Notes under the pieces: generated by a model
Told to the model about the DNA's origin: nothing
The model's input: only the letters and a program-made list of their open reading frames with translations
Databases searched by the model: none
Shown: positions 46,802 through 47,621 of the stretch, piece after piece
How positions within the stretch are numbered: position 1 is the first letter of the stretch
Layout of the letters: each line of letters begins with the position of its first letter
Translations under genes and position numbers: made by a program
From: a virus
IMG/VR virus record: IMGVR_UViG_3300022890_000014
Span: 86,745 to 150,744 of that record
Length of the DNA: 64,000 nucleotides
Strand: one strand, 5' to 3'

Positions 46802-46860
46802 GCCTTTCTCCTATATTATTAAGTCTAATATTATCTCACGTTATTTTGTATTCGTCCACA

Positions 46861-46877
46861 TGCATAAGGCTTACGTA
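46861..46877. repeat. 17-bp palindrome, two-base variant
   Basis: TGCATAAGGCTTACGTA: the G-to-A changes are symmetric in the two arms, so pairing is kept. It is followed directly by ATTGGTATAAG, as at 47557. Confidence 0.85.
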
Positions 46878-46880
46878 ATT

Positions 46881-46888
46881 GGTATAAG
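46881..46888 (+). promoter_or_regulatory. GGTATAAG promoter-like motif abutting a palindrome
   Basis: ATTGGTATAAGAATAGTAG; the palindrome ends three bases upstream, the same spacing as at 47577. It heads the hairpin-rich gene's transcript; the leader contains ATACCA-TAG-TGGTAT and CTGC-GTTAT-GCAG hairpins. Confidence 0.55.
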
Positions 46889-47015
46889 AATAGTAGAGAG
46901 GAAAATCCAGCCTCTTTATACCATAGTGGTATTTCTCGACTGGTTGTCTGCTCTGGGAATTCTCCCTGATTAGACATTCTGCGTTATGCAGTAAAATTAA
47001 AAGAAGGAGCTTGCT

Positions 47016-47507
47016 ATGAAAATCAGATTCACCACCACGTCGAACATAGACCTGGAAAAAGAAATTCTTATCGAAGGAGTGGGATTTGAATCAACTTTCG
47101 GCTCCTCCGCACGACTCAGACACGAGAAGAACGGTCTCCCAGTTTGGGAGACCGCCTGGAGCCAGTACACGTATACGTGTACTGGAATGTTCCAGTACAC
47201 GTACGTGGGGGCGGAACGAGGGTTCCTGAGTCAAGATCTACTCCCTGATTTTCAGGGAGTCCTCATACTTTCCGCAGAAGGATCCTACGGAAAATATGAG
47301 GGGAAGGACGCGCTACGGGCATACGCGTCTAAAAAGTCCTTCGCCTATGCTAAGGTAGAGGGGATAGTCCCCTACCTTAGAAACTTCAGTAATGACATTG
47401 ATGGGTATACAGTGGCGGCAATTGCCGCTACTGTATACGGCAAACGAGTCTCCAATAGGGCAACAACCAGACTAGCCAAGAAAGCGAAAGAAAAGCTTCG
47501 TGTCTAG
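47016..47507 (+). CDS. Hairpin-tiled gene, hypothetical 163-aa protein
   Basis: ATG has AAGGAG seven bases upstream and the frame is open for 163 codons. The DNA is an unusual chain of inverted repeats from 47133 to 47438: GGTCTCCCA with TGGGAGACC, a perfect 24-bp palindrome at 47162-47185, CTCCCTGA with TCAGGGAG, 14-base arms at 47261-47301, GAAGGAC with GTCCTTC, CTAAGGTA with TACCTTAG, and a 34-base near-palindrome at 47405-47438. The protein repeats YTYTCTG/YTYVG. It has its own promoter-like motif and terminator. Both a protein gene and a large structured RNA are possible. Confidence 0.65.
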   Translation: MKIRFTTTSNIDLEKEILIEGVGFESTFGSSARLRHEKNGLPVWETAWSQYTYTCTGMFQYTYVGAERGFLSQDLLPDFQGVLILSAEGSYGKYEGKDALRAYASKKSFAYAKVEGIVPYLRNFSNDIDGYTVAAIAATVYGKRVSNRATTRLAKKAKEKLRV

Positions 47508-47519
47508 TCTGTCGTCTGA

Positions 47520-47552
47520 AAGAACCTAGGATACAGTCCTGGGTTCTTTTTT
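47520..47552 (+). terminator. Strong Rho-independent terminator
   Basis: AAGAACCTAGGA (47520-47531) pairs with TCCTGGGTTCTT (47537-47548), 12 bp with one wobble, followed by T residues. Ends the hairpin-rich transcript. Confidence 0.9.
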
Positions 47553-47556
47553 AGCA

Positions 47557-47573
47557 TGCGTAAGCCTTACGCA
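47557..47573. repeat. 17-bp palindrome, exact, beside GGTATAAG
   Basis: TGCGTAAGCCTTACGCA followed by ATTGGTATAAG, the same composite as at 46861. Confidence 0.97.
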
Positions 47574-47576
47574 ATT

Positions 47577-47584
47577 GGTATAAG
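47577..47584 (+). promoter_or_regulatory. GGTATAAG promoter-like motif abutting a palindrome
   Basis: GCAATTGGTATAAGCAGAATAC, 38 bp before the gene at 47622. Confidence 0.55.
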
Positions 47585-47621
47585 CAGAATACACAGTGTA
47601 CTACAAATGAGGTTTGCCACT

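What the first reader, a model, noticed from the sequence alone, without database searches (positions are those of the whole stretch)
47016..47552. A gene whose coding sequence is tiled with long inverted repeats
Within about 300 bases (47133-47438) there are at least seven consecutive hairpins: arms of 9 bp at 47133-47153, a perfect 24-bp palindrome at 47162-47185 whose left half is repeated at 47192, 9-bp arms at 47240-47260, 14-base arms at 47261-47301, nested 7 and 6-bp arms at 47303-47342, arms at 47350-47380 with a bulge, and a 34-base near-perfect dyad at 47405-47438 whose only mismatch is a G-U pair in RNA. A further pair (47468-47475/47504-47511) brackets the stop. The leader also has hairpins, and a 12-bp terminator follows. 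Yet the frame is open with AAGGAG. No other gene here looks like this. It may be a large structured RNA that also codes, an mRNA protected from or targeted by nucleases, or a decoy for a host defence.
Basis: partly seen in the sequence, partly recalled or inferred. Interest (0 to 1): 0.88.

Follow-up and report, generated by a model that had tools for sequence, protein, structure and literature searches.

The report
Phage gene studded with perfect hairpins
One small orphan gene of a large DNA phage carries at least six near-perfect hairpins inside its protein-coding sequence, far beyond chance and unlike anything else in its genome, so its RNA or DNA may do a second job besides making a protein, but what that job is cannot be told without relatives or experiments.

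Summary
The hairpins are real. ORF 47016-47507 (163 aa, basic, AAGGAG start) folds 7 sd below synonymous-codon permutations on both strands. It holds five stems scoring 9 or more; 2000 synonymous permutations average 0.14 and never exceed two. It is the extreme of its 150.7-kb genome. About 1.35 Mb from other dsDNA phages and 82 ssRNA-phage records never exceed three such stems per 500 nt; here there are six.

All the excess lies in six discrete stems (69 codons). The other codons fold no better than their own synonymous shuffles. So this is an ordinary coding sequence with perfect hairpins set into it, not a globally structured RNA. The stems use all three codon registers and are about equally strong on both strands.

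The unit is moron-like: phage-type promoter, terminator, GC 0.49 against 0.415, raised outside the stems too. No homologue was found, so covariation is untestable. Capture from an ssRNA phage was tested and not supported. Best reading: an acquired orphan gene whose hairpins act in its transcript (0.4). Main rival: fold-back or template-switch palindromes without function (0.3). Function unproven.

The parts
46862..46898 (+). degenerate copy of the genome-wide dyad (46862-46876) followed by the presumed phage promoter GGTATAAG (46881-46888)
   Evidence: GGTATAAG occurs 24 times in the genome, often followed by a TAG/ATAG element; dyad list; promoter role inferred
46890..47015 (+). presumed leader, ordinary in structure, with Shine-Dalgarno AAGGAG at 47004-47009
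   Evidence: transcription start not mapped
47016..47507 (+). ORF of 163 aa, basic (pI 9.3), no homologue found
   Evidence: no internal stop; 4-10 stops in each of the other five frames; homology searches negative
47132..47154 (+). hairpin H1, 10 bp, 3-nt loop
   Evidence: -17.6 kcal/mol on either strand
47162..47203 (+). hairpins H2a/H2b: A-A'-A arrangement, 24-nt perfect palindrome (47162-47185) overlapping a 14-nt-arm hairpin (47174-47203); the two are mutually exclusive
   Evidence: -15.4 and -20.2 kcal/mol
47240..47260 (+). hairpin H3, 9 bp, 3-nt loop
   Evidence: -13.5 kcal/mol
47261..47301 (+). hairpin H4, 17-nt arms, better on the - strand
   Evidence: -16.7 on +, -26.7 on -
47303..47346 (+). 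weaker hairpin H5 with alternative pairings; not part of the significant core
47350..47380 (+). hairpin H6, 13 bp with a bulged A
   Evidence: -17.6 kcal/mol
47405..47438 (+). hairpin H7, 34-nt dyad, one G-U on +
   Evidence: -26.0 on +, -21.7 on -
47468..47511 (+). hairpin H8 around the stop codon; not part of the significant core
47517..47553 (+). intrinsic terminator-like hairpin and T run
   Evidence: -20.4 kcal/mol; activity not tested
47558..47584 (+). intact genome-wide dyad followed by the same promoter motif, serving the next gene; with 46859-46900 it forms a 42-nt direct repeat, 81% identical, flanking the unit

Best explanation
A lineage-specific, probably horizontally acquired, moron-like gene of a large dsDNA phage, with its own promoter, start, 163-aa orphan protein and terminator. 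Its coding sequence also carries at least six discrete, near-perfect, short-loop hairpins kept at the nucleic-acid level. Most likely they act in the transcript: each folds as the RNA leaves the polymerase, so that about 300 nt present stem after stem. That would shield the message from single-strand ribonucleases and Rho, or present many short duplexes to an RNA-binding host or phage protein, perhaps the basic protein that the gene itself encodes. Shown: the hairpins, their excess over synonymous controls, their independence of reading frame, their uniqueness in the genome, and promoter-like and terminator-like boundaries. Inferred: that they are selected, that they act as RNA, and every downstream role.
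For: Energy and stem count far outside synonymous controls. Excess confined to discrete stems inside one promoter-to-terminator unit, with the first codons left free. Stems in all three codon registers, so not a by-product of a repeated protein pattern. Most loops are 3-4 nt, fit for RNA. ORF open through all stems with a Shine-Dalgarno. GC 0.492 against 0.415, raised also outside the stems (0.487), and gene absent from nearest named kin, as for an acquired gene.
Against: No strand polarity: the antisense folds as well and H4 is better on the - strand. Few G-U pairs (2 of 75), although stems were picked by Watson-Crick matching, which biases that count. Two dyads have no spacer, as DNA palindromes do. 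No homologue, so no covariation. No expression data.
Confidence: 0.4

Rival explanations
1. Mutational origin without function: the palindromes were made by fold-back or template-switch replication, which copies a short stretch as its own inverse, in an orphan gene whose protein is under weak constraint.
For: Near-perfect arms with short spacers; the A-A'-A triple at 47162-47203; strand symmetry; no excess structure outside the discrete stems.
Against: All six lie in one gene of a genome that has only nine other such stems; every event would have had to leave the frame open; zero to three such stems per 500 nt in about 1.35 Mb from other phages.
Confidence: 0.3
2. DNA-level function: the dyads act as cruciforms or as hairpins in single-stranded DNA, for example in replication, recombination or protein binding.
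For: Symmetry between strands and two spacer-free palindromes of 24 and 34 nt.
Against: The dyads share no common motif; they lie inside an open frame within one transcription unit; a genome-wide dyad of uniform sequence exists elsewhere in this phage and is quite different; no sign of an origin here in the GC-skew profile.
Confidence: 0.15
3. A gene captured from an ssRNA phage (Leviviricetes), whose genomes are densely structured while coding.
For: Folding energy per base (-0.40) equals MS2 and Qbeta. A weak phmmer hit to an ssRNA-phage ORF of maturation-protein position (E 0.0066).
Against: The hit ranks second of 157 phage ORFs behind a small ORF, the best of 60 shuffled queries reached 0.022, and it vanished with maturation and coat profiles. 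ssRNA phages reach their energy without long perfect stems (at most 3 per 500 nt in 82 records), whereas here the excess is only in discrete stems.
Confidence: 0.04
4. Assembly or amplification artefact, or chance.
For: Single record; reads not available.
Against: z -7 and no permutation of 2000 near the observed stem count; the ORF is intact and neatly bounded by promoter-like and terminator-like sites; six different short hairpins are not the usual form of a chimera.
Confidence: 0.03

Closest known systems
Single-stranded RNA phages (Leviviricetes; MS2, Qbeta and 80 IMG/VR loci used as yardstick)
   Same: coding RNA with folding energy near -0.40 kcal/mol per base and similar z on 240-nt windows
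   Different: structure there is spread out and made of shorter, imperfect stems; here it is six discrete near-perfect stems; no protein relationship found
cabRNA of staphylococcal phages, sensed by the CBASS cyclase CdnE03 (PMC10686824)
   Same: structured phage RNA that overlaps protein-coding genes and can be changed at wobble positions without changing the proteins
   Different: comes from terminase genes and activates a defence; no sequence relation tested or claimed; role of the present RNA unknown
Rickettsia palindromic elements and similar palindromic inserts in coding genes (from general knowledge; related review PMC10969869 seen in search only)
   Same: palindromes inside open protein-coding genes
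   Different: those are dispersed families of similar copies; here each stem is unique and no second copy exists in the genome
Phage morons (from general knowledge)
   Same: single gene with its own promoter-like site and terminator, atypical GC, absent from the kin searched
   Different: hairpin-tiled coding sequence is not a feature of morons that I know of

Membership tests
Leviviricetes-derived gene | protein relationship to maturation, coat or replicase proteins | tested here: not met
   pairwise hit not above calibrated noise, profiles negative; sample limited to loci found with MS2/Qbeta replicase motifs
Leviviricetes-derived gene | structure spread through the coding sequence | tested here: not met
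   no excess outside six stems
Palindromic repeat element inserted in genes (RPE-like) | further copies of the element in the genome | tested here: not met
   DNA search of the own genome returns only the gene and its own palindromic arms; 24-nt palindrome absent from viral contigs
Phage moron | own promoter and terminator, atypical composition, absent from related phages | tested here: met
   promoter motif and terminator by sequence, GC in the top 1.2% of genome windows, no match in D181, D69 and Arash, which are distant; expression not tested
RNA activator or decoy of a host defence (cabRNA-like) | binding to or effect on a defence protein | not testable with these tools
   needs experiment; PMC10686824 read for comparison only
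Known RNA family | match to an Rfam model at its gathering score | tested here: not met
   only sub-threshold chance matches

The most novel reading that the evidence does not exclude
A dual-code phage gene: one transcript that both makes a basic protein and presents a tandem array of unlike but similarly shaped hairpins, used as a decoy, sponge or shield against a host RNA-sensing or RNA-cutting defence. This would be a kind of phage gene that I do not know to have been described.
Probability: 0.2. Interest if true: 0.85.

Novelty: new variant of a known kind. Interest (0 to 1): 0.6.

Why it matters
A single DNA-phage gene that reaches the folding energy of ssRNA-phage genomes through a few discrete perfect stems is not explained by any family searched here. 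If the stems are selected, it is a clean test case for a coding message with a second, structural job in phage-host conflict. If they are mutational, it is a hotspot of palindrome formation confined to one gene, useful for studying template switching. A stem-free synonymous version compared with the natural gene would tell the two apart.

Tried and rejected
Homology: tblastn against phages (E up to 10) and plasmids, peptide scans of viral contigs and genome contigs with the whole protein and parts of it, Pfam, PHROGs, PDB, Rfam, and direct searches of kin records: all without a relative.

Structure prediction from the single sequence failed (pLDDT 30), so no fold search was run.

ssRNA-phage capture: followed through 80 fetched ssRNA-phage loci with pairwise and profile searches; not supported.

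Protein-repeat explanation: rejected, because the stems use all three codon registers.

Restriction-site decoy: the gene has 9 six-base palindromes against a genome mean of 5.1 (sd 2.7, maximum 22 in other windows), not remarkable.

Relatives through the genome-wide dyad, or the dyad plus promoter string: none found.

Mobile cassette: the 42-nt flanking direct repeat first suggested one, but the dyad and the GGTATAAG motif recur across the genome, so the repeat is not evidence of mobility by itself.

Full report
What was checked. The window is positions 86745-150744 of a 150,744-bp virus record. The phage is a tailed dsDNA phage: terminase large subunit (PHROG 675, E 2e-45), a DNA polymerase (PHROG 405) and its own multi-subunit RNA polymerase. 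Its nearest named kin by RNA polymerase are Vibrio phages D181, D148 and D69 and Salmonella phage Arash, at about 30% identity, so it is far from every named phage in that collection.

The observation. Between a presumed phage promoter (GGTATAAG at 46881, one of 24 such sites in the genome) and an intrinsic terminator-like site (47517-47553) lies an ORF of 163 codons with AAGGAG before its ATG. Free energy of the CDS is -199.8 kcal/mol. Synonymous permutations (300) give -149.2 +/- 7.1, and resampling from the codon usage of six other window ORFs gives -135.2 +/- 8.4. The antisense strand gives the same picture (z -7.4 and -9.2). The full transcript has z -11.4, from only 20 shuffles, and the next gene -0.2. 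With a plain stem counter (score 9 or more, loop 3-11) the CDS has 5 stems, against a mean of 0.14 and a maximum of 2 in 2000 synonymous permutations. The gene with its terminator holds 6 of the 15 such stems of the 150.7-kb genome, and its windows are the most structured of the genome relative to GC.

How rare it is. About 1.35 Mb from other dsDNA phages (small overlaps between fetched stretches are possible) never shows more than 3 such stems in 500 nt; this gene with its terminator shows 6. Eighty-two ssRNA-phage records (264 kb) show at most 3. No hairpin-tiled gene was seen in D181 or in Arash. This is a sample, not a survey of all phages.

Where the structure lies. When codons outside the six core stems (H1, H2, H3, H4, H6, H7) were permuted or resampled among synonyms and the stems were held, the energy hardly changed (z -0.3 and -0.6 on +, +0.4 and -0.2 on -). 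Resampling only the 69 codons of the stems removed all of the excess (mean -150.7, z -7.1). So the gene is an ordinary coding sequence with discrete hairpins in it. The stems fall in all three codon registers, so they are not a shadow of a repeated protein pattern.

Strand. H1, H2 and H3 are perfect and therefore equal on both strands. H7 is better on + (-26.0 against -21.7), H4 better on - (-16.7 against -26.7), H6 equal. There is no polarity that would show selection on the mRNA alone. G-U pairs are 2 of 75 in the core, below the 9-10% of all predicted pairs in MS2 and Qbeta; but the stems were picked by Watson-Crick matching, so this is weak evidence.

Origin. GC is 0.492 against 0.415 for the genome (top 1.2% of windows) and is raised also outside the stems (0.487). 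Codon choice fits the phage less well than that of four neighbouring ORFs. The gene has its own promoter-like site and terminator and has no match in D181, D69 and Arash. This is the anatomy of a moron, though those kin are distant. The protein is basic (pI 9.3) and has no relative in any collection searched. A weak hit to an ssRNA-phage ORF in the position of the maturation gene (E 0.0066) was calibrated: it ranks second of 157 phage ORFs, behind a small ORF, and the best of 60 shuffled queries reached 0.022. It vanished with profiles. Those profiles were built from ORFs assigned by position and length, from loci found with MS2 and Qbeta replicase motifs, so the test is limited; within it, capture from an RNA phage is not supported.

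Mechanism. I rate a role of the hairpins in the transcript highest (0.4), because they lie inside one transcription unit, mostly have RNA-compatible short loops, and are set at the codon level while the frame stays open. A purely mutational origin (0.3) fits the near-perfect arms, the A-A'-A triple and the strand symmetry, but not the confinement to one gene. A DNA-level role (0.15) fits the symmetry, but there is no shared motif and no sign of an origin. Phage RNA hairpins inside coding genes are known to be sensed by a bacterial defence (cabRNA and CBASS, PMC10686824), which makes the decoy or sensor idea plausible but does not show it. The ribosome-binding site is predicted to be paired in the full-length fold, but its partner appears to differ between the minimum-energy and centroid structures, so I do not build on it.

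Limits. There are no homologues, no reads, no expression data and no usable protein model (pLDDT 30). Some collections may leave out records very near this genome, as the tools state. The novelty label follows the nearest known kind, coding sequence that carries hairpins; the tiled arrangement itself had no match in what I searched.

Noticed in passing
whole record; in the window e.g. 613, 5426, 43920, 47556, 62114: A uniform palindrome GCGTAAGSCTTACGC occurs 85 times (up to 2 mismatches) across the 150.7-kb record, mean spacing 1767 bp, 67 between genes and 18 inside ORFs, often just before a ribosome-binding site. Kin phages lack it and viral contigs hold only three stray copies. Role unknown.
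   Followed up: partly
46881, 47577, 43888, 44812, 45858, 59438, 60324, 63861 and others: GGTATAAG, often followed by a TAG/ATAG element, occurs 24 times in the genome and looks like a promoter of the phage's own RNA polymerase.
   Followed up: partly
L015:2278-9861, - strand (outside the window): A 2527-aa ORF joins the beta-type (Rpb2) and beta-prime-type (Rpb1) RNA polymerase domains in one chain, with a LAGLIDADG domain at residues 1088-1141 inside the beta part, possibly an intein.
   Followed up: partly
window 63829-63852 and record positions near 351-374 (L015): The 24-nt string AAGAGACTTCACATCTCTTTTTAT precedes a GGTATAAG site near both ends of the record.
   Followed up: no
46859-46900 and 47555-47596: 42-nt direct repeat, 81% identical (dyad plus promoter motif), flanks the hairpin gene.
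   Followed up: partly
47003-47020 and 47073-47090: The ribosome-binding region GAAGGAGCTTGCTATGAA is echoed 70 nt downstream inside the ORF (GAAGGAGTGGGATTTGAA, 72%).
   Followed up: no
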